A stretch of DNA of 64,000 bases, from assembly GCA_019044685.2 (NCBI GenBank), contig JAGTXX020000008.1, positions 248,001 to 312,000 on the forward strand, written 5' to 3'. The notes under the pieces are model-generated. The model saw only the letters and a list, made by a program, of their open reading frames with translations. It ran no database searches and was not told where the DNA came from. A program made the translations under genes and the position numbers. Shown piece by piece: positions 43,173-64,000 of this stretch (the stretch's first letter is position 1; every line of letters starts with the position of its first letter). The stretch comes from Nannochloris sp. 'desiccata'. Its lineage: Eukaryota; Chlorophyta; Trebouxiophyceae; Chlorellales; Chlorellaceae.

Positions 43173-43278
43173 AGGCGTTGTGGAAACACGCGCAGGTTCG
43201 AATCCTGCCAGCAACGAATAGACTGCATATTCGTACACTGCGTTGCTGTGACCGAGTGGTTAAGGTGGCGCCCTGCTA
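43173..43278 (+). tRNA. Circularly permuted tRNA-Ser(GCU)
   Basis: The 3' half (43173-43216) comes first, then a 25-nt linker (43217-43241), then the 5' half (43242-43278). 5' acceptor GTTGCTG (43242-43248) pairs 7/7 with CAGCAAC (43209-43215); discriminator G is 43216 and no CCA is encoded. The D-arm is ACC/GGT with GG in the loop. The anticodon stem GCGCC (43268-43272) pairs with GGCGT (43174-43178), one G-U. The joined loop reads CTGCTA + A, anticodon GCU, broken between positions 37 and 38. The variable arm is long (43179-43191, stem-loop with GAAA), as in Ser tRNAs. T-arm GCAGG-TTCGAAT-CCTGC is perfect. Box B therefore precedes box A. A circular RNA intermediate, cut later by RNase P and RNase Z, is expected from known permuted tRNAs. 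C32 can pair with G at -3 of the 3' junction (A-I pair). Confidence 0.85.
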
Positions 43279-50229: not shown

Positions 50230-51563
50230 AAAAGATGACGAGCTTTGTTAAAATTTTGTTGGCAAGGCGAGCAAATGAAGATAAAATGGAGTAGCGTAGA
50301 GAAACACCACCAAATGAAGGCCGCAGTTCATTGTGCTACATACGTATTACTTGGATTTTGACTTCTAGATCTGCAAATTTATCTTTCTGCATTTTCTCCT
50401 GCCTGTTGACGGCGGTGCATTTTTTTTGGTTCTTCACTCTGCCTCCTTTCTTACTCTTTATAATCTTACCCCTTATCCGCTAGTATATCCTTCACCACTG
50501 ATTTAACGATTTAACTCCAAAAATACCCCCCTGGGAGTAAAATCGGCCCACAGCGGCCGATGTGATGTTTTCACTGTCCACGGCAACTTTTTAAGTCACC
50601 CTGTTAGGGTTAATTTGTTTTGTTTTGTTCCTGTTTTGTGAATAGTAATCATTATACCGCTCTTGCGGACTAGATAGTAGCGCAATATATTGTTAATGAA
50701 CCTGCTGTAGCTAACTGCCTTAATTAGAAACTAGAAAAGCTTGGAGGGAACTAAAAATAAGCGGCATTTAATTGCGAGGCAATGTCGCCGGCCAATGTCG
50801 GCATGGCGGGGTTTACGTAAAGTAGATCAAATCGCAAGTTATTGTTTTACCTTTTTGCTTGCATAGCTTCATGTAAGGTATAGCAGGATTTTTAAAGTAC
50901 CAAACAATGAGAATAGAGCCATTTTTGTTGGTTGCAAATTCTCAGAATAGCTCCCTCCCCCGAGGCTCTCTCTCTCTCTCTCTTTACAGCCTTTAATATA
51001 TGAATATATTCTGCTGCCAGAAAACTGATTCAGATAATAATAGAGAAAATATTTGTAAAACAGTTCTTTTAAGATAGGAATATGGAAAAACACAGCCAAA
51101 AACGCCGTCGACGCCACAAAATATTCACCCTCCCCCGAGGCACCAACCTCATGAGCCGCCGCCAGCGAATAGAGGAATATTTTGAAAGATTGAAAGAATT
51201 AGAATAATGCTATTTCTCTAGTGGATTGAATAATGCACACTAGATTGATTACAGGTATCGTACAATAATGCTGCTGTAAAGATCTTTGAAAAGAATAAGC
51301 GATTGGGGCGGCGACAAAGCCATTCCCAAGCTCTACCAATTAAGCCCAGTTGCACACCTTCCAGGGCATTTATTCACTCATAGCAACCATTTGATTCTGC
51401 AAATTTAAAAGAATTATCACCGTACATCCACATAGAACAACTAGCGTCGGGACTTTTGAAAAGTGGTCAATGTCAAATTCAGATCTGAGACCGCCGTTCG
51501 ACGTGTTTGGTGCAGAGTAAATGATCACAAATGATATGGTCACAAAGGACCAAAAAGTAAGTG
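50230..51563. other. 1.3-kb region without a gene
   Basis: AT-rich, with a CT microsatellite near 50967-50984. At 51333-51348 (minus) is a lone tRNA D-arm-like sequence without partner arms. Confidence 0.4.
51552..51556 (-). terminator. Pol III T-run after permuted tRNA-Arg
   Basis: TTTTT on the minus strand starts 8 nt after the 5' half of the permuted tRNA-Arg. Confidence 0.6.
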
Positions 51564-51643
51564 CCGTAGACTAACGCGTTATCCAATTACGCTACGCGGC
51601 CAGTGCATGACCACGATAGGACTCGAACCTACAATCTTCAGTT
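51564..51643 (-). tRNA. Circularly permuted tRNA-Arg(ACG)
   Basis: Reading the minus strand, the 3' half (51643-51608) comes first, then a 6-nt linker TGCACT (51607-51602), then the 5' half (51601-51564). Acceptor GGCCGCG (51601-51595) pairs 7/7 with CGTGGTC (51615-51609), two G-U; the discriminator is A (51608). D-arm GCG/CGC has GG and the A20 typical of Arg. The anticodon stem TTAGT (51574-51570) pairs 5/5 with ACTGA (51642-51638), one G-U. The loop is CTACGG + A, anticodon ACG, broken between 37 and 38. Variable loop AGATT and T-arm GTAGG-TTCGAGT-CCTAT match eukaryotic Arg tRNAs. A T5 Pol III stop follows the 5' half. C32 can pair with G at -3 of the 3' junction. No second 5' or 3' half is nearby, so it is not a tandem of normal genes. 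Confidence 0.88.
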
Positions 51644-51782
51644 GACATCTTTGATGATGCCCAAATATTGACACTAGATAACCTACCCCAAAATTTGTAT
51701 TTTTTTGCCTCTTGAAAAAAAAGCAAGTAAAAGTACAAGTAAGCAAGAACGCACCCATCTAGTGGGGCCCTCCTTTCCTGAG

Positions 51783-53480
51783 ATGGCCCCTCCCAGGAGC
51801 AGCAGCCTTGCTTGGCAGGCATTGTCAGATGTTTCGTCGAAAATTTTGACAACGGTTATTTTCAGCCATCGAGTCCTCCAGGGACTTGACGAGGCTGAGA
51901 ATTGTAGTAGAATAGAGAAATTGGTGGGAGAAACGCTTCAGGCGGCCGCCACCAATATTTTAGAAAATGCGGTTACAGATCAAGATCTGCGCGTGAAAAG
52001 CACTTTTGTTGCTAAAAGCAAAGATAGCCAGCCGATTGCGGTTAGATTGACTGTTAACCTTCTCACAGAGGCGGCGGTTAAACTCTTAGATGCTATTCCC
52101 AAGGTTGGAAATCAAATAGCAACCCCCGACGGTGACATGCTTCACCTGAAATGGCCGGATCGCCCGATTACTGAGGCTTTCCTCATTACCAACGTGCCTT
52201 CTGGCATTAAGGTAGATAGTATTCAAGAGCATATGAAAGAAAAATGGGACCTGGAGACTCTGTCCCTGGGATACGCTCCCACTCGCGGATCCCCCGGCCT
52301 CTTCCACGCTCATACGCTCCTTGGTGTATTTAAAGGCACCAAGTTTCCTGCCCAAATCGTAATATCTGGTATGCCTGGTGCCCCTGGTACTCGTAAGATG
52401 TCTTTCCGTCGTATTACGCTGCCTCCACCACCACCACCATCACCGCCACCTCGACCTGAGGCTGGTGATACCACTCATCTTAATACTGCAACCCTTGCTC
52501 CAACTCTGGCTGCTGTCGTTGCACAAGGAAAATTTAGGAAACTGTCTACAGCGGAGAAGGCAGTACTGAATTACCTTGTAAATTCTGATACTGCGTCTAG
52601 GTATCATGCGGCTGATACCGAAGCAGCAGCTGCAACAGCAACAGCTACAGCTACAGTAGCAGCAGCACAGGGTGGCACCGCCGCTGTTTTGACCGAGGAG
52701 GCAGGAAAGGCTGGAAACCAAGCCAATACTGGTCAAGCTCGAATTGATGCGAATGAAGATGACATTCAAAGCATGGGGGAAGGCAGACAACCGCCGGGGG
52801 CGACTGAGGAACAAATGGCGGCTGAAAGAAATCAAGGAGAGTCTGGCGATGGCGGTCAAGAAAATAACCCAAACGGTCAAGTAAATGATCAAAGGGATGA
52901 AAGTGAACGCGAATCTGGAGTTACAACAGAGCCAGAAGACTCTGAAACTGCTGATGAGATCGTGACAGGCGATAAAGAAGGTCAGAGGGAAGCTCTATCC
53001 CCTACTGCGCGAGGCGCTGCCGATGTTGCTGGTGTATCGGCTGCCGTTGCCGGTAATGTTGCATATGGTGAACAAGAGGAGGTAGATATAGTGGAAGACT
53101 TCCAAGTAGTGCAAAAACAAAAGCAGCGCCATATTGAAGCTAGTGATCGCCGTTTACAGCTACTCACCCGGGTCCAAAGCAAAGAAAAAGTCTCTCCTAG
53201 TACCAAGAGGGCGAGGATGGCTGCTCGGTGCCGGGACTCGCCGCCTACCAAAAAATATGGCACGAGATCCCAGCCTCAAGCCACAGTGGGGGTGACATAT
53301 CCAACCCACACTCTATCTAGCTTACCTGGCAGTATCACTGTTCAAAATACTCCTACTAATAATAGCTTTGCTCTGTTAGAAGAGGAAATGGAAATTGATC
53401 CAACGATTCCCGAGTTGGATTATGAGGCCTCACCTGCTCCAGAGGGAGCTGATGGGCCCAGTGACAAACAACAGGAATAG
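51783..53480 (+). CDS. LINE copy A ORF1 protein
   Basis: 565 residues from the ATG at 51783 (MAPPRSSSLAWQALSD); upstream in-frame codons lack ATG. The N-terminal 230 residues form a folded-looking region (TNVPSGIKVDSIQEHMKEKW, RRM-like in feel), as in ORF1 RNA-binding proteins of plant LINEs. A proline run (PPPPPPSPPPRP) and a long Ala/Gly/Glu-rich low-complexity part follow. Several basic stretches near the C-terminus (SPSTKRARMAARCRD) could bind nucleic acid. ORF2 overlaps its end. It has no recognisable cysteine knuckles. Confidence 0.75.
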   Translation: MAPPRSSSLAWQALSDVSSKILTTVIFSHRVLQGLDEAENCSRIEKLVGETLQAAATNILENAVTDQDLRVKSTFVAKSKDSQPIAVRLTVNLLTEAAVKLLDAIPKVGNQIATPDGDMLHLKWPDRPITEAFLITNVPSGIKVDSIQEHMKEKWDLETLSLGYAPTRGSPGLFHAHTLLGVFKGTKFPAQIVISGMPGAPGTRKMSFRRITLPPPPPPSPPPRPEAGDTTHLNTATLAPTLAAVVAQGKFRKLSTAEKAVLNYLVNSDTASRYHAADTEAAAATATATATVAAAQGGTAAVLTEEAGKAGNQANTGQARIDANEDDIQSMGEGRQPPGATEEQMAAERNQGESGDGGQENNPNGQVNDQRDESERESGVTTEPEDSETADEIVTGDKEGQREALSPTARGAADVAGVSAAVAGNVAYGEQEEVDIVEDFQVVQKQKQRHIEASDRRLQLLTRVQSKEKVSPSTKRARMAARCRDSPPTKKYGTRSQPQATVGVTYPTHTLSSLPGSITVQNTPTNNSFALLEEEMEIDPTIPELDYEASPAPEGADGPSDKQQE

Positions 53481-56400
53481 GCATCACGCTAGACGTGGTG
53501 CCGCTACACTGAAGGTTGGTACCCATAACATTAATGGCCTACGAAAGAAACTCACACTGGCCATGAAGGAGTGGGCCAGACTTCAGTTAGACGTGGTGTT
53601 TATTCAAGAACATCATATTAGTGGACTAGTGCATGAGATGGAATTAGGACTTTCAAGGCGAGGTTGGAAAGCGTTTTGGGCTTTTAACAACGTGGGTGGA
53701 GGTTCTTCTTCTGGCTCATCCACTAGTGGAGTATTAATAGTAGTAAAGCGCAATTTGGTTACTTCTGGCGCTTTAAAAATAGCAGAGAATAGTTTGAAGA
53801 TTTGGGGCCCTGACGACGGCCGCTGCCTCAGTATAAATGCTGATTGGCGTGGCCATAAACTTCAACTAGCCTCTATTTATATGCCAAATGATGCGGCATC
53901 ACAAAAAATATTTATTGAATCACGTTTGGCCCCGATGAAAACAGCTGCTGGTCAACGCTTAACGCTGTGGGGTGGTGATTTTAATTTTGTTCATAATCCT
54001 AATCTGGACAGGCTGAGTAAACGGGCTGCCGTTCCTGGAGAGGTCCCTGGTATGTACCGTCCTCCTGAAACAGAACACACAGTTGGAAAATTTTGGTGTG
54101 ACCAACTACCTTCGGTCTCTGATATCTGGCGGCACCGCCATCCGACGGGTAGAATGATGACTCACTTTGGGGGTCGCTCTGCTGCCAGGCTGGATAGATT
54201 TTATATAGGGGATGATGGCACAGCTTATGCTGGTGTTAATTCACGAATCCAGCGTCCCAGAAGAGAAAATGGAAGCTTCCTCTCTGACCACTGCCCTGTC
54301 GTGATGGAGTTGGCCCAGAAAATTATAGAGGGAGATCGTGGAGCTTCCTTTGCCCCTAGATTAAGGATGTATTTTGCTTCTGAAAACGACCTGGTCACTG
54401 AATTCATTACTTGGCTGGCCAGTAAGAAAGCACACATGCCTATTAATTACAAAGCCCGCTTAAAATGGTGGCGGCGCCTCAAGCGTGATATCAGCCGAAA
54501 AGTGTTTCGCCTTAATGGTATCCAACGAGCCCGGCAACGAGCTCCAGTGGCAGTATTACGTGAAGAGTTAGAAGAGTTATATACTTTTATAGAAGGATCT
54601 GACCCGCTTGCTGCTGCAACATCGCTGGCAGCGCTGCCGGAAGCCCGACAAGCAGTAGCTGCTGCTGAAGAGGCGTTAGAGGATGTTTTTCAACTTAAGC
54701 AAAAGCGAGATTGGATCCACAACCATGAAAGACCCACACGTGCTCTCACTGGGCAACTCAATCCCAAGAAGCACCAGGGGGTCTCTGCATTGCGTGCTGC
54801 CAATGGTGAAATTGTCGGCACCTCTATCGGTTGTGCTCGGGTGGTCACTACCCATTGCGCTGCAGTCTCAGCCAAGCCTACAACAACTAATGCAGCTCAA
54901 AATTTAGTATTAGATGCAATGGAGCGCCAAGATAGCCCTGTACTGGACAGTGGTCGTGCTGAAGTGTTGGGTTCTGTAGTGGTAACAGAACAGGAGGTCC
55001 TCGTGGCGCTACGTCGCAGCAAACCTGGCAAGGCACCCGGCAGAGACGGAATCCCTGTCGAACTCTATAAAAAGTTTAAAACACAGTTTGTACCTATATT
55101 AGCAGGTGTGTTTACTGCTATAGGAGTCCTGAAGAATCTACCTTGTGGATTCCTGGATGGTGTTATAACTGTGCTGTATAAAAAAGGTGATCGTGTCGAT
55201 GCTGGAAACTATCGTCCAATTTCTCTCACCAATACTGACTATCGAGTGCTTGCTAGGGTACTGGCTGGACGACTTGGCGAGGTCCTACCTGACCTGGTGG
55301 ATCCAGCTCAGACTGCTTTCATAAAGGGTCGATGTATAGGAGATAATGCAATGTTACTACAATTTGTCGCAGCTCTACTGAAAGAGGAAGGTAGATCTGC
55401 TGTGCTGGCATTGTGTGATTTTCGTAAAGCGTACGACACTGTAGATAGATACTTTTTGCTAGCCGTGGCAACAAAAATGGGCTTAGGGCATGGGTTCGTC
55501 CAGTGGGTTCGCCTACTACTCGAAGGCACACGCTCTGCAGCTATTATTAATGGTTATTTAGCAGAACCAAAGCTTCTCTTAGCTGGTGTGAGGCAGGGCT
55601 GCCCCCTCGCTCCCTTGCTGTATCTACTCATTGGACAGGCACTGCTGTGTTGGATCAAAGACCAAGGCATTGGAATTCAGATAGCAGGCTCTCTACTCAG
55701 TGGCAGCCAGTTTGCTGATGATCTGAAGGCTCTCTTGGATGGTCCACAACAGATCCCTGCTTTCAAAGCAGCAATGGCTACCTTTGCTACAGCGTCTGGC
55801 CAGCACTTATTGCCAGCCAAAACGCAGCTACTTTTTATTGGAGTTCCCCCAACCCAACCTTTGCCTGCTGAAATTGAGGGGATGCCTGTAGTGCATAGGG
55901 CAAAGGCTCTTGGTCTCTGGTTTGAAGAATTTACTGGAGAAGTCAGTGTTGACTGGCAAGAGATGAAAAACCGTGTTGCTGGCAAGCTGGCGAAAATATC
56001 TCGATTAAACCTCTCTTGCTTCGGCCGTGCTTTTTCGGTAAATTCGTACGCTCTCGGTACGTTTCTGTATCATGCTGAATTTGCTGGCTTACAACAAGAC
56101 AATGAGTTAGAAAAATGGATAGCAGCGGTCGTTGACCGCTCTCAAGGACCACCTCCTGGAAGAGGGTTTGCTGGAGTAGCAGCTGTCAATCTAGTGGGAC
56201 ACCCTAAAGAGGGTGCTTTTGGTTTAATGCCGTTGGCAGAACATGTGAAAGCACGTGCTGCTCGATGGCCGTTGAGGCTCGTAACGGAAGATCTTGCTTG
56301 TCCCACACCATGGGTGCGAGTAGCTCGCGCCCTAGTGCAGAGAGCTCTTGCTGGTACTCAAACAAAGTACGACAAGCGTCTCTTCATGCTTTCACCACCC

Positions 56401-57681
56401 AGAGGTGAAGCAGCGGGCTACCCTCACAATTACCCAAAACTGGTGAGAAAAATATTGCAAGTGGTAGCGACACTCCCGGTTGCTACAGTGCTTGATGAAA
56501 GTGAATGGCAACCTGGCCCTTGGTGCCATGTGATGCCACTATGGGGAAATCCAATGTTACAAAGTGATACTGGTAAGGGTGGTTATGAATTTTCTGAAGC
56601 AGGCTGCTATTTCAGAGAATGCCCTTGGCAGACGCTCGGTGAGTTGTTGAAGGCGAGGACCCAGATCCAGCAATGGAGCCAACAGGAGTGGCAACAACAC
56701 GGTAGTACTTTTGCCACGTATATTGGTTACTATGGTCTCGGAACCCAGCGTGGAGATGCTCTTGAGAAAATTGAGGAATTCCTCAACTATTTAAATAAGC
56801 CTGCCTGGATATTGGCAGCGGAAGCGGCTGAATCAGCTTTGGTACTTGCAGGCCAGCCGCTACCAGACCAGGCAGCTGTCGTAGACAAACTATGCAAGAG
56901 CATTGGATGGAAGGTTGGAAACCGTTCCTATACTCCTGAAAATCTCACTGTGAAGATTGCTACGACCCTAGTCACTCAACCCCCTTACCCGAAAGCACCG
57001 CTCCATCCTAACTGGCTTCACCCACGGTCAAGAAAATTTCGAGATTTTGCTCTCCAAATTGGAGGCGGGCTTAGTAAGGATAAGGTAGTAGCGACATTAG
57101 GCAGATTGTGGATACTGCCTATAGATAATTCCCATAAGGAGATAGTATGGAGATTAGCTCTAGATGGGCTGCCCACTATTCAGCGTTTACACCGTCCTAC
57201 TCAAGTGTGTGGCTGTGGTGGAGCAGTAGGCGATGCCGCTGGACGGCAACATGTTTATTTTAACTGTGCAGCTATACGCCCTATTATAGATTCCATTGAA
57301 CAACAACTTCAGGATGAGTGGGCGTTACCACCCCAAGCACCGTCCCTTCAGTGCCATCACCTATGGATGGCGGTACGCCCTACAGAAGCGATACACCAAG
57401 GAATCTGGGATGTGGTTTGTATTTCTGCCTTGAAAGCGATGGACAGCACTAGAGCGGGTTTGTTCAAAAGGCAATTCGCTGGTGCTCAGCCTAGAACAGC
57501 TCTAGCAGCCTCGGTGGGTGTTCGAGCTTGTGCTCAGTTTTGGGCAAACATTGCTAGTTTTTGTGGCCATAATTTAGCTCCTAGAGCATGGCGTGGCCAA
57601 GTGTCCACGACACACCCCTTTATATCTTTTAATACAGACTCAGAAAAGTGGACTTTAAACCGCAGCTCTGGGTCTGGATAA
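53452..57681 (+). CDS. LINE copy A ORF2: APE endonuclease, reverse transcriptase
   Basis: 1409 residues if started at the ATG at 53452, overlapping ORF1 by 29 nt in another frame; an earlier ATG is at 53422. The endonuclease domain (about residues 15-290) shows GTHNINGL, IQEHH, GGDFNFVHNPNLDRL, RLDRFYIGD and SDHCPVVME. The reverse transcriptase (about 515-800) shows GKAPGRDGIPVELYKKF, NYRPISLTNTDYRVLARVLA, FRKAYDTVDR, GVRQGCPLAPLLYLL and the catalytic FADD (55711-55722). The C-terminal part has CGCGGAVG...HVYFNC, the zf-RVT type motif of plant L1 elements. The frame is open throughout, suggesting recent insertion. Confidence 0.93.
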   Translation: MGPVTNNRNRHHARRGAATLKVGTHNINGLRKKLTLAMKEWARLQLDVVFIQEHHISGLVHEMELGLSRRGWKAFWAFNNVGGGSSSGSSTSGVLIVVKRNLVTSGALKIAENSLKIWGPDDGRCLSINADWRGHKLQLASIYMPNDAASQKIFIESRLAPMKTAAGQRLTLWGGDFNFVHNPNLDRLSKRAAVPGEVPGMYRPPETEHTVGKFWCDQLPSVSDIWRHRHPTGRMMTHFGGRSAARLDRFYIGDDGTAYAGVNSRIQRPRRENGSFLSDHCPVVMELAQKIIEGDRGASFAPRLRMYFASENDLVTEFITWLASKKAHMPINYKARLKWWRRLKRDISRKVFRLNGIQRARQRAPVAVLREELEELYTFIEGSDPLAAATSLAALPEARQAVAAAEEALEDVFQLKQKRDWIHNHERPTRALTGQLNPKKHQGVSALRAANGEIVGTSIGCARVVTTHCAAVSAKPTTTNAAQNLVLDAMERQDSPVLDSGRAEVLGSVVVTEQEVLVALRRSKPGKAPGRDGIPVELYKKFKTQFVPILAGVFTAIGVLKNLPCGFLDGVITVLYKKGDRVDAGNYRPISLTNTDYRVLARVLAGRLGEVLPDLVDPAQTAFIKGRCIGDNAMLLQFVAALLKEEGRSAVLALCDFRKAYDTVDRYFLLAVATKMGLGHGFVQWVRLLLEGTRSAAIINGYLAEPKLLLAGVRQGCPLAPLLYLLIGQALLCWIKDQGIGIQIAGSLLSGSQFADDLKALLDGPQQIPAFKAAMATFATASGQHLLPAKTQLLFIGVPPTQPLPAEIEGMPVVHRAKALGLWFEEFTGEVSVDWQEMKNRVAGKLAKISRLNLSCFGRAFSVNSYALGTFLYHAEFAGLQQDNELEKWIAAVVDRSQGPPPGRGFAGVAAVNLVGHPKEGAFGLMPLAEHVKARAARWPLRLVTEDLACPTPWVRVARALVQRALAGTQTKYDKRLFMLSPPRGEAAGYPHNYPKLVRKILQVVATLPVATVLDESEWQPGPWCHVMPLWGNPMLQSDTGKGGYEFSEAGCYFRECPWQTLGELLKARTQIQQWSQQEWQQHGSTFATYIGYYGLGTQRGDALEKIEEFLNYLNKPAWILAAEAAESALVLAGQPLPDQAAVVDKLCKSIGWKVGNRSYTPENLTVKIATTLVTQPPYPKAPLHPNWLHPRSRKFRDFALQIGGGLSKDKVVATLGRLWILPIDNSHKEIVWRLALDGLPTIQRLHRPTQVCGCGGAVGDAAGRQHVYFNCAAIRPIIDSIEQQLQDEWALPPQAPSLQCHHLWMAVRPTEAIHQGIWDVVCISALKAMDSTRAGLFKRQFAGAQPRTALAASVGVRACAQFWANIASFCGHNLAPRAWRGQVSTTHPFISFNTDSEKWTLNRSSGSG

Positions 57682-58171
57682 CTCTGTAGCTATTTATAAT
57701 GGCAAATTTTAATTCTTCATCTTCGCCACCGCCGCCACCGCTCCTTCTCCTCCCCCTCCTTTACCCTTGGGGGCGGTCTCGGCATGGTTCCTCTGGGCTG
57801 AGGTGTGGTTTAGGTGTGTGATGCTATAGCTATTGCTGAAAGCTAGGTGGCAGTATTGCGTCTCACCAGCCTGAGGCAGTGCAGCTGGGGCAGAGCACTC
57901 TATTCCCTGCCGCCCCTCTCCCAAAATTTATTTTTTTCTAAAATATTCAAATACACTTTTTTCTGTTACTGGACTTTCAGTCCTGGCCTGTGCTTCTGCA
58001 TTCTGAAATTTCTTTTACAAAGCCTTGGTTTCGTGTATGTATGTCATTTATCTTGCATTTGTGTTCTGCAGCACCAAGCTGGGGACTTATAAGAGTTTTA
58101 TAGACGCCGCCAGCTGGCGGTGCATGGCTATGTAACCCACAGTAAAGTAAAAGTAAAAAAAGCAGAAGTAA
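57682..58171 (+). other. 3' region and tail of LINE copy A
   Basis: Non-coding, T-rich then GTAAA-rich at the end. The border with copy B is marked by a GGAAGCC/GGCTTCC inverted repeat (58175-58181 and 58198-58204). Confidence 0.5.
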
Positions 58172-58195
58172 ATAGGAAGCCTTCAACGAGGTTGG

Positions 58196-59821
58196 ATGGC
58201 TTCCTCTCCAGCTATCCAGAATGTGCCAGAAGGTACTCAAGGACAAAAAAAAAATTCTTCTGATCAATTGTTTGATCGAAAACCAAAAGCGCGATTTCAC
58301 GTGTTTTCTCCTGCACCGTCCACTGAAAGCTTTAGTACTAATTGTATTAAAGTTGAAAGTGCTATCGCGGATGCAATTAACGCGGTTAACAGTGAGTTAT
58401 TTTCCCAACTAACTGCTGACATCAATGGGTCTGAACTCAAATCCAGCACTCATTTGAACAAATCAAAGGATGGTGGTGAGCATCGGATGTTCACTAAGTT
58501 TGAACTCTATTCTGCGCGGGCAGTGGACCTCTTTCAAAAAACCTTCCCCCTCAACCGCCGGGTATCGAACCCCGAAATTGCCTCTAGGCAATTCTCCTAC
58601 TCTTGGCCAGACCAGCCAAGACGTCTACCACGCGTACGTGTTCCTGAACAGGATTACATGGCGTTGTCAATTCGTGGAGGTCAGAAGATTCCTCGTGATG
58701 TACTGGCATCAGCACTCTCCTCAGCACAGGCTCGCCTTTGCTTTACCTTACCGCTGCGAGGTCATGGCCTTCAAACGGTTTCTATGAATGATAGCTTGGC
58801 TATTATCAAATGCCTCAGGCCCCCAAAAACCATTACAATAGGTGATAAACCTGTTCTCTTCTACGTAATTACTCCAGTAAATCCGGAAGTCCCATCTGCC
58901 AACCCCCCTAGGGGTTCCTATGCTGCGGCCGCTGCTGGTGCTCCCCGCCCTCCAGCAGCTTTTCAGATCCAAGCATGGAATGCTATCCAAGAAGCTCGCT
59001 TACAGAAACTCGGAGACGATTTCACTGGTACTACTACTGCCACTGGTCATGTTAACTCAGCTCCCTCTGCTGCTGCTGCTGCTGCTGCTAAGACTGCTGT
59101 TGCTACTGGAACAGCTGCCGCAGGCGACACCGCTGCTGGAAAAGATGTTCACCGTACTCTCACTGTAGAGAAGTCTAAGGAGAATGGCGATTCTGGAAAC
59201 CAGATTGACGAAGATGAAACCTCCTTAAGAGATGAAGTTGGGATGGAAACTGTTGTCAATCGTACTGCTGAAGCCGATGTCGCTCCGGCTATGCCAGATG
59301 GCGCCAATGTTACTGCCGCCGCCGGCGGCGGTAACATTGGCGCTGATAAGGAAGAAGGAGAACTGGTCGTCGAGGTCAACAAGCCTAACGACGACATGGA
59401 CCTCACTAACCCTAGATCTGCCGTTGAAGATGAAGAAGAAGTAGATGAAGCTGGTGCTGTAGCAACAGATGTTGCCTTCATTGTTGCTAAGGAAAAAACA
59501 GGGGTCTCTCGAGTCAGAGTTCGTCGTGCTACGACAAGATCTATCACTGCTAATACTCCTCGTGCTACTGGTAGTCCTTCTAAAAGGAGAGTAAGACCTC
59601 CTGAATCCAGCCCACCCTCTTCAGAACCCGTGAGGAAGTCTCCCAGGAAAACTCCCCGGAAGACCCTTGCGGCTTTGGAAAACCCAAACAGGGGTCGATC
59701 ATCGCCCGCTCCTGCCCATAATAGGTCTTTGCAGCCTTATTTCGCTGCTGTTGTCACTGGTTTAACGTCACCCGAATCGAAGAAGCCACAGGGGTCTCCT
59801 AGTAAACCCCTCCTACAGTGA
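58196..59821 (+). CDS. LINE copy B ORF1 protein
   Basis: 541 residues from the ATG at 58196 (MASSPAIQNVPEGTQGQKKN). The N-terminal 250 residues look folded (LYSARAVDLFQKTFPLNRR, PLRGHGLQTVSMNDSLAIIK), followed by Ala/Thr-rich and acidic low-complexity sequence. The C-terminus is basic and serine-proline rich (RKSPRKTPRKTLAALE), probably nucleic-acid binding. It shares layout but little sequence with ORF1 of copy A. The stop is one base before the ORF2 start. Confidence 0.75.
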   Translation: MASSPAIQNVPEGTQGQKKNSSDQLFDRKPKARFHVFSPAPSTESFSTNCIKVESAIADAINAVNSELFSQLTADINGSELKSSTHLNKSKDGGEHRMFTKFELYSARAVDLFQKTFPLNRRVSNPEIASRQFSYSWPDQPRRLPRVRVPEQDYMALSIRGGQKIPRDVLASALSSAQARLCFTLPLRGHGLQTVSMNDSLAIIKCLRPPKTITIGDKPVLFYVITPVNPEVPSANPPRGSYAAAAAGAPRPPAAFQIQAWNAIQEARLQKLGDDFTGTTTATGHVNSAPSAAAAAAAKTAVATGTAAAGDTAAGKDVHRTLTVEKSKENGDSGNQIDEDETSLRDEVGMETVVNRTAEADVAPAMPDGANVTAAAGGGNIGADKEEGELVVEVNKPNDDMDLTNPRSAVEDEEEVDEAGAVATDVAFIVAKEKTGVSRVRVRRATTRSITANTPRATGSPSKRRVRPPESSPPSSEPVRKSPRKTPRKTLAALENPNRGRSSPAPAHNRSLQPYFAAVVTGLTSPESKKPQGSPSKPLLQ

Positions 59822-59822
59822 A

Positions 59823-62800
59823 ATGCCTCTCTTCCCTACTCTCCCAAGAGTAGGGCTTCGCCGTCGGGCCAGCAACACTGCTGCTGCTGCTCCCGACAGC
59901 TATAAGCCTGTCAGAGGCTTATCTCTTGTATCTCATAATGTTAGAGGTCTCTCAGTGTCTAAGCTCGCTGATTTACTTCCATTATGGGATAAGTTACATG
60001 CTGATGTGGTGTGCATTCAAGAACATCATATTCGTAATATTTTGGAGACCCCTCCACTTAATAACCTTCTAGGCAGCCGCCCAAGTGGTACTGGCTGGAA
60101 ACCTCTCTGGCGTTTTAATGAAAGCGGTGCAAGCTCTTCTAATCGTGGCAGCGCAGGCGTGGCTTTTCTTATACGTTCCCACCTCCTCAGGGATGAATTA
60201 ATTAAAATTGATGGCGGCGGTGGCGGCAATAACTTTGAATCAGCTGTGCGATCTTGGTCTCCAGCAAATCAAGAAGATGGTCGTAGTATTTCCGTTGATA
60301 TCTCATGGGCAGGGCATAAATTAACATTGGCTTGTGTCTACCTTCCAAATCACTCTGTTGATAGAACTGAATTTATCAACACTCGTATCGTTCCGTTAAA
60401 AAAATATGCATCGTCTAAAGGTCGCCAACTCGTAATGGCAGGCGACTTTAACTTCGTCCACGACCCCTATTTGGATCGTCTTACTGTTCACCAAGGTGTT
60501 GTGGGAAACCCAACATCCCAGTCGGTGCCAACTGCTAATGAGTGGAGCCGGCACCATGAACTTGATGCTTTGGTAGATGTTTGGAGGGCACAACATCCGT
60601 CTGGAAGATACCTATCGTGGATGCAAAATGGCGCTGCTGCTCGTCTGGATAGGTTTTATATGGATAGAGAAGTAAGTGCCTACGCCCAATGTCCATCAAA
60701 ACTTCCAAAAGATGCTTTGGGTAGAGCTCTCTACAAATCTGATCACGCCCCGGTGGTGTGCTGCTTGTTTGGCCGCTCAAGCCAAGCTGAGACGTCTGGT
60801 CCTACTGGATCTAAACGTCAACCACGCCTAAATATCTCTTTCATGAAAGATCAAGCCCTGGCTGGAGAATTTGCTGATTGGTTGGAGTCCAAGCTGGAAA
60901 CTATGCCGTCATCGGACAGGGAGCGTATCTCGTGGTGGACAAAATTCAAAAGCAAAGTCTTGCGTTGGGAAGTCTTTAAACTGAATGGAAAATATTTTCA
61001 GTCTTGTCTTCAAAAGCACTCTTACGATAAGTTATTGTCCGAAGCAGGTGACGTGTTGACAGCGCTGAACGGATCAGACCCAGCAGCACGCTCGGAGGCG
61101 ATGTCGAGATTTCCAGCCCTCAAGTCCGAAATAGCTACAGCTGAAGCTGAACTCGAAGCATTTAAGCAAACTAGAGAACGTAGGGCCTGGATCCACCACA
61201 AGGAAAGGCCCTCTCGTGCTCTCTCTTATGCTCTCCTCCAACGCAAGCAAGAGGACATAGCTGCACTGCAAGATGACAGTGGTGTAGTTCATACTGCTAG
61301 AAGCAAATGTGCTGACATGGCTATGAAATTTTGGGCTGGTATTTCCTCCCAACCTGAAACTAATGCTGAAGCGCGTGCTCAAGTTCTGGCTGCACTGGCA
61401 GCTGACTCCCTTCCCCAGATTGACGTTGCAGCGGCTCAACAACTTGGATCTCAAACGATTACAGTTGACGAGTTGTTGCAAACGCTGAAGAAAAGCTCTC
61501 CCCACACTGCCTCTGGCCCTGATGGCATTCCTATGAAGCTCTACAAAAGGTTCAAAGATCAGTTTGCTCCGATGTTAGCTGCTGTTTTTAGTGCATTTGG
61601 TAAATTGCAGCGGGTTCCACGGCGATTCTTGGACAGTATTATTACTCATATTTTCAAAGCTGGTAGCAGACTGAAAATTGGTGATCACAGGCCTATCTCC
61701 CTAACAAACACAGAGTACCGTTTATTAACTCGAGCTCTGGCAGGACGATTAGGTGGAGTTCTACAAGATGTCATCGATCCAGCTCAAACAGCCTTCCTCC
61801 GGGGAAGAAACATTGGAGACAACGCAATGCTGCTCCAGATTCTTCCTGCGTGGTTAAATCAACAAAATCGATCTGGTTTAATTGCTTTTTGTGATATCAG
61901 GAAAGCTTACGATACTGTGGATCGCCAATTCCTCTTTGAAGCTGCCAAAACCATAGGGCTAGGCAATGGTTTCGTTAACTGGATGAAGTTATTGCTTACA
62001 GATACCCGGTCGGCGGCGCTGGTGGATGGGTACCTGTCCGATTACCACAAAATGGAAGCAGGAGTGCGCCAAGGATGTCCCTTGGCTCCCTTACTATATC
62101 TGCTTATCGCTCAAGCCGTGCTTTCATGGCTTAAATCAAAAGGTATAGGCATCACAGTGCTCTCTGAGCTCTTGACTGCTGGTCAGCACGCCGATGACTT
62201 GAAAGCCTTGCTCGAGGGACCTGAAGAAGTCCCTACATTTATTGTTGCAATGAAGATCTTTGCCATGGCTACTGGTCAACATATGCTGCCAGCTAAAACA
62301 AAGCTTCTCCCCATTGGGAAGGTTCCTGAAGTCCCCTTGCCTGAACAAATTGAGGGTCTCCCTGTAGTATCCTCAGCAAAAGCATTGGGTCTCACTTTCT
62401 CAGCCTATACTGGAGAGGTCTCGGTGGACTGGTCTGAAATGATAAAGAAAGTTCATGAACGAGTTAGCCGTATAGTTAAATGCAAGCTCTCTCCTTTTGG
62501 CAGAGCCTTTGCAATGAATGGATATGCCCTTAGTCGCATTCTATTTGCAGCCCAGTTTGTGGGACTGCCGGCGGGCACCCAGCTGAATTATTTGCAAAGC
62601 ATGATTGCAGCAGCGGTTGATAGTGGCACGTGCCTGCGACTTCCTGGTGAAACTGGACCTTCTCAACGACACTTTACCCACGTCAGTAAAGAATTATTGG
62701 TTGGTCATCCCAAACATGGTGGAATGGGCCTTATGGACCTACCAACACATATTACTTCCATGCATCAAAAATGGGCTTGCCGCCTCCTCACAGGCAATGC

Positions 62801-64000
62801 TAATTGCCCCTGGATCAAGCTGGCTAGAGCCGTTTTATCTAATATTATTGATAGATCTGAAACCTCTAATCGTACTCCCTACACAGCCCCGAGGCTTCAT
62901 TTTCTCTGTGCTATTTTGGAAGGATTAGATACCTATTTCTCTCCCAGAAATGGCCATATCCCCCTCTGCTTAAGACAGATGGCTGATGCGCTCGCAGCAT
63001 TACCTCCTCTTAAGATAGTAGCAAGCCTGGTCCCTGGCCCTTGGTGTTCTAATACTCCCATCTGGAGTAATCCTATATTATTGGATTCCACAAATCAGCC
63101 TTTGGAAAGAGGCACTTCTGCTTTGAATCCTCTTAATGGTCGCGGCATCGCCTCCCTTGGCGATTTGTTGAAAGCACGGATGGAGCTGGAGGCAATCAGC
63201 CCGGAACAATTCTTTAGAACCTGGAAGGACTTAACATACCCTGGGAGACCGAATGACTGCCCTCTGGATTCTCTCCCCCATAAAATTTTCTTCCAACATA
63301 GAACTATTCCAGCGGTGGCGGCTATTCTTGATGCTGCCATAGTGGAGATGGATCAGAAGCTTCCTGTTGGTTGGTTAGATGCAGCTCAATATCCTGGTAC
63401 AGCTCTGGTCTCGGATACTGAAGATCTTATCCTTTCAAGCATGGGCTGGACCTTTAAGAATCGTAAAATTTTGTTGAAGGGATTCTCGGTGAAGATGGGC
63501 ACTATACTGCAGGTTACTCAGCGAGAACCCCCTCAAAAGGCTAAGATGGAAGAATTTGCCAAATTAGTATCAGAAGATACACCATTGCAGGCTGTTCAGC
63601 GGATGTTTGCGCGCATTTGGCAATTGCCCTGTGATGGCAATGACCTCGCCCCGCTGTGGTACTTGGTTTTAAATGGATGTGCTACTGCTGAACGCATGAA
63701 TTCATTAGCTAATCTCCCTTGTGGATGCCAAACATGCAATGGACCTACGCGTTTGCATGCTTTCTTTGACTGTCCTATAGTGCAGCCTCTGCTGCAATCA
63801 ATTCTAAAACAGCTTCAAGGAGATGGAACCTCCCCGCTCTTATCTCTCCAGCGCAACCATATTTGGTTGGCTGCTAAACCAATCACCAGCTTGCATCAAG
63901 GGATTTGGGATATAGTAGTTGTATTCACTGTCAAATCAATGGAGGCTGCGAGAAGAAACTGGACTGATCGTGCTCTTAAAGCACAACAACGCAAGCGTCA
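59823..64000 (+). CDS. LINE copy B ORF2: APE endonuclease, reverse transcriptase (3' partial)
   Basis: The frame is open from the ATG at 59823 to the window end (1392 codons), starting one base after the ORF1 TGA. Endonuclease motifs are SHNVRGLS, CIQEHHI, AGDFNFVHDPYLDRL, ARLDRFYMDR and SDHAPVV. RT motifs are TASGPDGIPMKLYKRF, DHRPISLTNTEYRLLTRALA, DIRKAYDTVDR and GVRQGCPLAPLLYLL. The catalytic box reads HADD (62187-62198) where copy A has FADD; the two Asp are kept. A CGCQTCNG...HAFFDC motif near 63724-63773 matches the C-terminal zinc motif. The end of the protein lies outside. Confidence 0.9.
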   Translation, partial: MPLFPTLPRVGLRRRASNTAAAAPDSYKPVRGLSLVSHNVRGLSVSKLADLLPLWDKLHADVVCIQEHHIRNILETPPLNNLLGSRPSGTGWKPLWRFNESGASSSNRGSAGVAFLIRSHLLRDELIKIDGGGGGNNFESAVRSWSPANQEDGRSISVDISWAGHKLTLACVYLPNHSVDRTEFINTRIVPLKKYASSKGRQLVMAGDFNFVHDPYLDRLTVHQGVVGNPTSQSVPTANEWSRHHELDALVDVWRAQHPSGRYLSWMQNGAAARLDRFYMDREVSAYAQCPSKLPKDALGRALYKSDHAPVVCCLFGRSSQAETSGPTGSKRQPRLNISFMKDQALAGEFADWLESKLETMPSSDRERISWWTKFKSKVLRWEVFKLNGKYFQSCLQKHSYDKLLSEAGDVLTALNGSDPAARSEAMSRFPALKSEIATAEAELEAFKQTRERRAWIHHKERPSRALSYALLQRKQEDIAALQDDSGVVHTARSKCADMAMKFWAGISSQPETNAEARAQVLAALAADSLPQIDVAAAQQLGSQTITVDELLQTLKKSSPHTASGPDGIPMKLYKRFKDQFAPMLAAVFSAFGKLQRVPRRFLDSIITHIFKAGSRLKIGDHRPISLTNTEYRLLTRALAGRLGGVLQDVIDPAQTAFLRGRNIGDNAMLLQILPAWLNQQNRSGLIAFCDIRKAYDTVDRQFLFEAAKTIGLGNGFVNWMKLLLTDTRSAALVDGYLSDYHKMEAGVRQGCPLAPLLYLLIAQAVLSWLKSKGIGITVLSELLTAGQHADDLKALLEGPEEVPTFIVAMKIFAMATGQHMLPAKTKLLPIGKVPEVPLPEQIEGLPVVSSAKALGLTFSAYTGEVSVDWSEMIKKVHERVSRIVKCKLSPFGRAFAMNGYALSRILFAAQFVGLPAGTQLNYLQSMIAAAVDSGTCLRLPGETGPSQRHFTHVSKELLVGHPKHGGMGLMDLPTHITSMHQKWACRLLTGNANCPWIKLARAVLSNIIDRSETSNRTPYTAPRLHFLCAILEGLDTYFSPRNGHIPLCLRQMADALAALPPLKIVASLVPGPWCSNTPIWSNPILLDSTNQPLERGTSALNPLNGRGIASLGDLLKARMELEAISPEQFFRTWKDLTYPGRPNDCPLDSLPHKIFFQHRTIPAVAAILDAAIVEMDQKLPVGWLDAAQYPGTALVSDTEDLILSSMGWTFKNRKILLKGFSVKMGTILQVTQREPPQKAKMEEFAKLVSEDTPLQAVQRMFARIWQLPCDGNDLAPLWYLVLNGCATAERMNSLANLPCGCQTCNGPTRLHAFFDCPIVQPLLQSILKQLQGDGTSPLLSLQRNHIWLAAKPITSLHQGIWDIVVVFTVKSMEAARRNWTDRALKAQQRKR

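What the first reader, a model, noticed from the sequence alone, without database searches (positions are those of the whole stretch)
51564..51643. Second permuted tRNA gene: tRNA-Arg(ACG) with a 6-nt linker
On the minus strand the 3' half, a 6-nt linker and the 5' half of a tRNA-Arg follow each other, ending in a T5 Pol III stop. Acceptor 7/7, anticodon stem 5/5, Arg-typical A20 and AGATT variable loop are all present. The compact unit (about 80 nt plus terminator) argues for a functional transcription unit rather than debris.
Basis: partly seen in the sequence, partly recalled or inferred. Interest (0 to 1): 0.9.

Follow-up and report, generated by a model that had tools for sequence, protein, structure and literature searches.

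The report
Arginine tRNA gene with swapped halves
A tiny green alga encodes its arginine tRNA with the two halves in reverse order, so the RNA must probably be joined into a circle and reopened to work; most of the tRNA genes we could resolve in this genome are built the same way.

Summary
Confirmed. At 51564-51643 (minus strand) lies a complete circularly permuted tRNA-Arg(ACG) gene: 3' half (positions 38-73), 6-nt linker, 5' half (1-37), then T5. The junction is 37/38 and the eukaryotic splice-signal pair 32:i-3 is present. No other Arg(ACG) gene was found, while CGT/CGC are 70 of 126 Arg codons in four window ORFs, so the gene is probably essential.

The locus is not alone. A partial census resolved 24 permuted genes, all split at 37/38, against 9 nuclear genes in normal order; simulations give 0.5 permuted-like hits per genome. 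All five Arg isoacceptors found are permuted. The largest count I saw in print is 11 (C. merolae).

Retroelement 5' ends lie head-to-head 71-131 bp upstream of the first-transcribed base at five of the 24 permuted genes, at two extra Trp copies, one normal tRNA gene and a 5S gene. This resembles Dictyostelium TRE5 and suggests that Pol III factors occupy permuted genes. RNA evidence could not be tested. The locus is a new member of a known kind.

The parts
51608..51643 (-). 3' half of tRNA-Arg(ACG), positions 38-73 (A38 to A73), lying upstream of the 5' half
   Evidence: ARAGORN on rejoined halves
51602..51607 (-). 6-nt intervening linker (TGCACT); [quoted passage not shown]
   Evidence: removal is inference from the published pathway
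51564..51601 (-). 5' half, positions 1-37 (acceptor, D arm, anticodon stem, anticodon ACG)
51552..51563 (-). 7-nt trailer plus T5 Pol III stop
   Evidence: a T4+ run within 25 nt of the junction in 22 of 23 permuted genes against 227 of 1284 control places
51644..51649 (-). end of leader with G at i-3 (51646) that can pair with C32 (51569): anticodon-intron pair
   Evidence: Watson-Crick at i-3 in 16 of 23 permuted genes; the other 13 offsets 0-10 of 23
43173..43278 (+). the other permuted gene of the window: tRNA-Ser(GCT), linker 25 nt, junction 37/38
51730..58131 (+). LINE-A (ORF1, then ORF2 with endonuclease and reverse transcriptase domains), 5' end 87 bp from A38, head-to-head with the tRNA gene
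   Evidence: 5' end set by the stretch shared with L034, 3' end by the start of the stretch shared between LINE-B and L184
58132..64000 (+). LINE-B, second LINE directly behind LINE-A, reaching the window end; its ORF2 is 38.5% identical to that of LINE-A; copies of its 5' end lie next to tRNA-Val (C15) and a 5S rRNA gene (C4)

Best explanation
It is a functional, probably essential, circularly permuted (type II, junction 37/38) nuclear tRNA-Arg(ACG) gene of Nannochloris sp. 'desiccata' or a very close strain. Shown from sequence: order 3' half - linker - 5' half, an intact cloverleaf after rejoining, a splice-signal pair at the junction, a T5 stop, and no second Arg(ACG) gene found. Inferred: RNA polymerase III starts upstream of the 3' half and stops at T5; the tRNA-splicing endonuclease cuts at 37/38 and a ligase joins the ends into a circle; RNase P and tRNase Z remove the 6-nt linker; CCA is added; A34 becomes inosine; the tRNA reads CGU, CGC (and CGA).
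For: Stems 7/7, 5/5 and 5/5 and a normal loop. ARAGORN: rejoined halves 23 of 23 called with the expected anticodon, genomic order 0 of 23, mismatched halves 72 of 506. Covariation over 11 of the permuted genes: 95.5% of cells paired, all 7 acceptor pairs change on both sides, 0 of 500 shuffles as high. Chance rate 0.5 per genome against 23 hits under the same rules. Pair 32:i-3 Watson-Crick in 16 of 23. T4+ run within 25 nt in 22 of 23, no TTTT inside any of the 23 units. Single copy; CGT+CGC are 70 of 126 Arg codons in four window ORFs. Two loci of the tRNA-splicing endonuclease family (PF01974). Retroelement 5' ends 81-131 bp head-to-head upstream of the 3' half at five of the 24 permuted genes and at two extra Trp copies, as at normal Val (113) and 5S (71).
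Against: No RNA data. No clear TATA peak upstream of the 23 permuted genes: A+T 0.53-0.56 at -40 to -11, 0.62-0.68 at -100 to -41, 0.66 at -10 to -1. The single-sequence fold is not better than shuffles (z -0.44). Pair 32:i-3 is missing in 6 of 23 genes and in Cys, the 24th, though present here. TFIIIC, ligase, RNase P and tRNase Z genes were not searched for; endonuclease subunits were not assigned. The assembly may lack sequence, so 'only copy' holds for this assembly and these two searches.
Confidence: 0.93

Rival explanations
1. A decayed or silent remnant of a tandem tRNA duplication: the two inner halves remain and make no tRNA.
For: A probably decayed permuted Leu-like copy exists elsewhere (L070), so permuted relics occur. 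Tandem duplication with loss of the outer halves is a published origin model (PMC3978253).
Against: All stems are intact, the splice pair and stop are kept, and no normal copy was found. Within 400 bp on either side the best other matches to the halves are 19/38 and 17/36, so no outer halves are recognisable. Compensated stems across 11 genes.
Confidence: 0.05
2. A tRNA-like non-coding RNA of the Y RNA-like (YrlA) kind, which also carries a T arm before a D arm and is not made into a tRNA.
For: Rfam YrlA matches 51655-51546 (minus) with E 0.035.
Against: 29.1 bits against a gathering score of 69. Both halves rejoin into a full tRNA with anticodon ACG, and 22 other genes with other anticodons behave alike. 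That YrlA is bacterial is recalled, from no call.
Confidence: 0.01
3. Chance juxtaposition or an assembly artefact.
For: One inverted duplication at the end of contig C8 (extra Trp copies, L034) looks like an assembly fold-back.
Against: 0.5 permuted-like hits per simulated genome against 23; 24 resolved genes on 13 of 18 contigs (places).
Confidence: 0.01

Closest known systems
Circularly permuted tRNA genes of green algae, type II (Ostreococcus, Micromonas; Maruyama et al. 2010, seen only as tabulated in Soma 2014, PMC3978253, Table 1)
   Same: 3' half before 5' half, junction 37/38 (one O. tauri entry is 15/16), hBH-type signal, short linker
   Different: Arg(ACG) is not in that table; the green algae there have 3-6 permuted genes each, here 24 were resolved
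Permuted tRNA genes of Cyanidioschyzon merolae (Soma et al. 2007, through the same review)
   Same: Same order; circular intermediate shown there; 11 of 43 genes permuted; linkers 7-74 nt
   Different: C. merolae junctions lie at four positions and a TATA-like sequence is reported for most; here all 24 lie at 37/38 and no clear TATA peak is seen
Permuted tRNA genes of Auxenochlorella UTEX 250-A (PMC12633428 / PMC12636532; passages)
   Same: Another trebouxiophyte; tRNAscan-SE gave an incomplete set and permuted genes were then found
   Different: Number and anticodons are in a supplementary figure that I could not read, so that genome could hold many too
TRE5 non-LTR retrotransposons of Dictyostelium (PMC5911963, passages; PMC5006619, abstract and outline)
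   Same: LINE with two ORFs that lands upstream of tRNA and 5S genes in the opposite orientation
   Different: About 40-54 bp (tRNA) and 37-41 bp (5S) there, 71-131 bp here; here the neighbours include permuted genes

Membership tests
circularly permuted tRNA gene (type II) | 3' half precedes 5' half on one strand, joined by a short intervening sequence | tested here: met
   36 nt + 6 nt + 38 nt
circularly permuted tRNA gene (type II) | rejoined halves make a complete standard tRNA | tested here: met
   ARAGORN tRNA-Arg(acg)
circularly permuted tRNA gene (type II) | junction at 37/38 with a signal for the splicing endonuclease | tested here: met
   C32 pairs with G at i-3; a full 4-bp BHB helix (32-35 with i-3 to i-6) is not formed by eye, only the eukaryotic anticodon-intron pair
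circularly permuted tRNA gene (type II) | T-run stop after the 5' half and none within the unit | tested here: met
   T5 starts 7 nt after the junction; no TTTT inside
circularly permuted tRNA gene (type II) | upstream TATA-like or AT-rich promoter | tested here: inconclusive
   AT-rich region over 23 genes but no peak at a fixed distance
circularly permuted tRNA gene (type II) | CCA not encoded (eukaryotic nuclear) | tested here: met
   A73 is followed by TGCACT
circularly permuted tRNA gene (type II) | circular RNA intermediate and charged mature tRNA | not testable with these tools
   needs RNA from the strain
YrlA (Y RNA-like) | match at or above the Rfam gathering score | tested here: not met
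   29.1 bits against 69
TRE5 tRNA-targeting LINE (for LINE-A and LINE-B) | 5' end upstream of Pol III genes in opposite orientation | tested here: met
TRE5 tRNA-targeting LINE (for LINE-A and LINE-B) | insertion about 40-54 bp from the tRNA gene | tested here: not met
   71-131 bp here; it may work like TRE5 but is not filed as TRE5

The most novel reading that the evidence does not exclude
In this alga permutation is the default form of the tRNA gene, and it is kept up by the retroelements that dock on Pol III genes: LINE enzymes, brought by Pol III factors to sites upstream of tRNA genes, reverse-transcribe circular pre-tRNA intermediates and write them back as permuted genes. The permuted state would then spread through the tRNA set by copying an RNA circle rather than by tandem duplication.
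Probability: 0.12. Interest if true: 0.88.

Novelty: new member of a known kind. Interest (0 to 1): 0.64.

Why it matters
In the 2014 review permuted tRNA genes were a minority: 34 in seven organisms, at most 11 in one genome. Here they are 24 of the 33 nuclear tRNA genes resolved and include all five arginine isoacceptors found. If they are the working genes, protein synthesis in this cell depends on RNA circles, and 30 of those 33 genes (24 permuted, 6 with introns) need the splicing endonuclease. ARAGORN sees 0 of 23 of the permuted genes in their genomic order, so annotation can miss them. The head-to-head retroelements next to permuted, normal and 5S genes offer a possible natural footprint of Pol III factors and make two open questions testable: how genes with A and B boxes in reversed order are transcribed, and how permuted genes arise.

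Tried and rejected
Rejected readings: YrlA-like RNA (score far below the cut-off); remnant of a tandem array (no recognisable outer halves); chance. The single-sequence fold and the look for a TATA peak gave nothing decisive. A second possible Arg 5' half (C3:425763, 3 mismatches) was fetched and shows no tRNA.

Rows dropped from the count of 24 permuted genes: L070 (Leu-like; a hit under the rules, but no anticodon arm can be rejoined by eye; treated as a relic), L174 (T stem with 2 mismatches), L090 (Pro-like T arm, 5' half not resolved), L019 (broken, looks organellar by eye), L056/L075 (repeat with a T-arm-like stretch), and two extra Trp copies in an inverted repeat at the end of C8 (L034/L035). 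Rows added by hand: L025, Arg(CCG), fails the script's A-box rule; L052, Thr(TGT), has one acceptor mismatch and fell below the threshold (one search counts it with a threshold of 7.79, where the simulation used 7.8); Cys in L010 was found by model R1, its B box being outside my patterns. L043 failed a narrower A-box rule and passes the wider one used later.

Normal order: the rules give 13 hits; L063, L159 and a second reading of L099 are false, and L004 with its copy L005 (Ser(GCT), organelle-like by eye) was set aside, which leaves 9. The same rules give 19 normal-like hits in 10 simulated genomes; the 9 kept are also called by ARAGORN, except that L011 is Ser(CGA) by my reading and Pro(cgg) by ARAGORN.

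Census limits: B-box patterns only. Sites in hand: all 43, all 23, all 75 (the last one, C9:1062374, fetched), all 15 (one of them inside LINE-B in the window), all 14, but only part of the 90 (those shared with earlier lists plus 14 more). About a dozen expected isoacceptors remain unseen (for example Asn, Tyr, Lys(TTT), Glu(TTC)), so 24 and 9 are lower bounds.

Retroelement targeting is a preference at most. Of six SINE copies brought in by their own B-box-like motif (L006/L041, L010, L015, L020, L039, L051), two (L010 Cys, L015 Phe) have a Pol III gene within 150 bp, one lies 762 bp upstream of tRNA-His, and three show none by Rfam or model R1. The diverged LINE-B relative on C12 (L185) shows none. 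The Trp gene at C8:321685 (L033) has no element in its 3-kb locus; only its copies at the contig end do. The SINE pieces at Phe and next to Arg(TCT) are short and 80-83% identical. Of the 32 loci (L099, L114, L161, L162, L172) hold less than 150 bp upstream, so elements there could be missed.

Full report
What is there. On the minus strand the window reads, from 51643 down: 3' half of a tRNA (A38 to A73, 36 nt), linker TGCACT, 5' half (G1 to G37, 38 nt), trailer CACTTAC, TTTTT. The acceptor stem pairs 7/7 (two G-U), the T stem 5/5 (one G-U), the anticodon stem 5/5 (one G-U); the rejoined loop is CTACGGA, anticodon ACG; the variable loop is AGATT. ARAGORN sees nothing in the genomic order and tRNA-Arg(acg) after rejoining. 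The stated coordinates are exact.

Host. The genome searched (G000) has 21.55 Mb in 18 contigs; the window is C8:248001-312000. The HSP70 of the window is 100% identical to proteins of Nannochloris sp. 'desiccata', one of them on a 553,710-base contig (C8 here has 553,629). A table in PMC12636532 gives N. desiccata UTEX 2526 as 21.6 Mb and 45.0% G+C (passage); the 2-kb blocks of the window are 40-49% G+C. The genome paper (Sanders et al. 2022, J Phycol) I know only from a reference list, so I cannot say what it reports on tRNAs.

More than chance. I scanned the genome for B-box motifs without regard to the order of halves, fetched the sites, and asked for each whether a 5' acceptor strand with an A-box-like stretch follows or precedes the T arm (184 B-box-like sites). 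Twenty-three permuted genes could be decoded: Leu(CAA), Ala(TGC), Gly(TCC), Phe(GAA), Ile(TAT), Ser(GCT), Arg(ACG), Trp(CCA), Ser(AGA), Ala(CGC), Thr(TGT), Lys(CTT), Arg(TCT), Arg(TCG), Met(CAT), Leu(AAG), Leu(TAA), Arg(CCT), Ile(AAT), Glu(CTC), Ala(AGC), Gly(GCC) and Arg(CCG). A twenty-fourth, Cys(GCA), came from a covariance model built on 11 of them. All are split at 37/38; linkers of the 23 are 5-73 nt. Under one set of rules, ten simulated genomes of equal size gave 5 permuted-like hits in all, and the 150 distinct sites held from the real genome gave 23, that is 22 of the decoded genes and the relic L070. Nine nuclear tRNA genes have the normal order: Val(TAC), Gln(CTG) and Met(CAT) without intron, and His(GTG), Pro(TGG), Ser(TGA), Asp(GTC), Pro(AGG) and L011 with introns (L011 is Ser(CGA) by my reading, Pro(cgg) by ARAGORN). 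So 24 of 33 resolved nuclear genes are permuted; both numbers are lower bounds. The rows added and dropped by hand are listed under Tried and rejected.

Signs of selection. Rejoined halves are called as tRNAs with the expected anticodon in 23 of 23 cases, in genomic order in 0 of 23, and halves of different genes in 72 of 506. Over 11 genes the acceptor, T and D stems keep pairing while changing (95.5% of cells paired; 0 of 500 shuffles as high; sliding the partner drops pairing to 39-48%). Position 32 forms a Watson-Crick pair with the third leader base before the junction in 16 of 23 genes (17 with G-U), against 0 to 10 of 23 at the other 13 offsets tested; offset 2 never pairs. This is the anticodon-intron pair of eukaryotic tRNA introns (the exact positions are general knowledge; A-I pairs are described in PMC3978253). 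Six of the 23, and Cys, lack it. A T4+ run lies within 25 nt of the junction in 22 of 23 against 227 of 1284 control places, and no unit holds TTTT inside.

Need. A search with the 141-nt stretch around the unit finds only itself; a 21-nt stretch of D and anticodon arm with up to 3 mismatches finds itself and one other site, which was fetched and is not a tRNA by eye, ARAGORN, Rfam or model R1. CGT and CGC are 70 of 126 arginine codons in four window ORFs. All five arginine isoacceptors found (ACG, TCG, CCG, TCT, CCT) are permuted. If the assembly is complete here, the cell makes its CGY-reading arginine tRNA only from this locus.

How it most likely works. Shown: gene order, intact parts, splice pair, stop, single copy in these searches, and two loci of the tRNA-splicing endonuclease family (PF01974; subunits not assigned). 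Inferred from the pathway described for C. merolae and green algae (PMC3978253: abstract, sections 5, 6 and 8, and the first part of sections 4 and 10): Pol III transcript, cut and ligation at 37/38 to a circle, removal of the linker by RNase P and tRNase Z, CCA addition. The step least explained is transcription, because A and B boxes are in the reversed order and no sharp TATA peak is seen.

An unexpected witness. A LINE (LINE-A) starts at 51730, 87 bp upstream of A38 and pointing away from the tRNA gene. The same arrangement recurs: a SINE at Phe (88), Arg(CCG) (101), Arg(TCT) (85) and Cys (81), LINE-A at the two extra Trp copies at the end of C8 (125 and 131), LINE-B at normal tRNA-Val (113, slightly 5'-truncated) and at a 5S rRNA gene (71). 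All are head-to-head. In one search, which looked at 32 loci (23 permuted, 9 normal), 5 have such an element within 150 bp upstream; further element hits lie farther upstream (L006, L059, L072), and one 32-nt match lies downstream (L066) and looks like chance. The Cys gene was found because its SINE was examined, and the Phe locus was first brought in by the motif of its SINE. In Dictyostelium, TRE5 elements insert upstream of tRNA and 5S genes in opposite orientation, with Pol III factors involved (PMC5911963, passages). By analogy, the elements here mark places where Pol III factors sat, and at permuted genes that place is upstream of the 3' half, the half transcribed first. It is a preference at most: of six SINE copies brought in by their own motif, two have a detected Pol III gene within 150 bp, one lies 762 bp from tRNA-His, and three show none.

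What is known and what is new. Soma 2014 counts 34 permuted genes in six algae and one archaeon, at most 11 in one genome; Arg(ACG) is not in the table. Auxenochlorella, another trebouxiophyte, is reported to have permuted genes (passages), with the list in a supplement I could not read. My searches for 'permuted tRNA' (45 papers hold the term, 40 listed, titles and abstract starts seen), with Trebouxiophyceae, with Nannochloris (only the Auxenochlorella paper), with retrotransposon (8 listed, none of which by title or abstract start reports it), and for retrotransposons upstream of tRNA genes in green algae (none) showed no report of permuted genes in Nannochloris or of retroelements aimed at permuted genes; the library lacks most subscription journals. 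The locus is a new member of a known kind. The share of permuted genes, the permuted arginine set and the retroelement docking are the parts that a specialist would find surprising.

Noticed in passing
window 51730-58131 and 58132-64000 (+): Two LINEs stand one behind the other upstream of the permuted Arg gene, LINE-A between the gene and the 5' end of LINE-B, as if both had used the same landing zone.
   Followed up: partly
L010, L020, L025, L039, L051, L006, L059 (SINE copies): A SINE-like repeat of about 420 bp with its own B-box-like motif shares a 35-nt stretch with the end of LINE-A (window 58103-58137), as in SINE/LINE partnerships; copies or pieces lie 81-101 bp upstream of four permuted tRNA genes (Phe, Arg(CCG), Arg(TCT), Cys).
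   Followed up: partly
L184 108-226 (-): A 5S rRNA gene (no second copy in the 351 bp held) with a LINE-B 5' end 71 bp upstream.
   Followed up: partly
L034 1380-2640: The end of contig C8 holds an inverted duplication of the permuted Trp gene with LINE-A 5' ends; it may be an assembly fold-back.
   Followed up: partly
L070 1499-1564 (+): A permuted Leu-like unit with intact T arm and acceptor but no anticodon arm that can be rejoined: probably a decayed permuted copy.
   Followed up: partly
L090 142-158 (+): Pro-like T arm and acceptor strand whose 5' half was not resolved; perhaps another gene layout.
   Followed up: no
L004 and L005: Two copies of an organelle-like tRNA-Ser(GCT) on contigs C6 and C13.
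   Followed up: no
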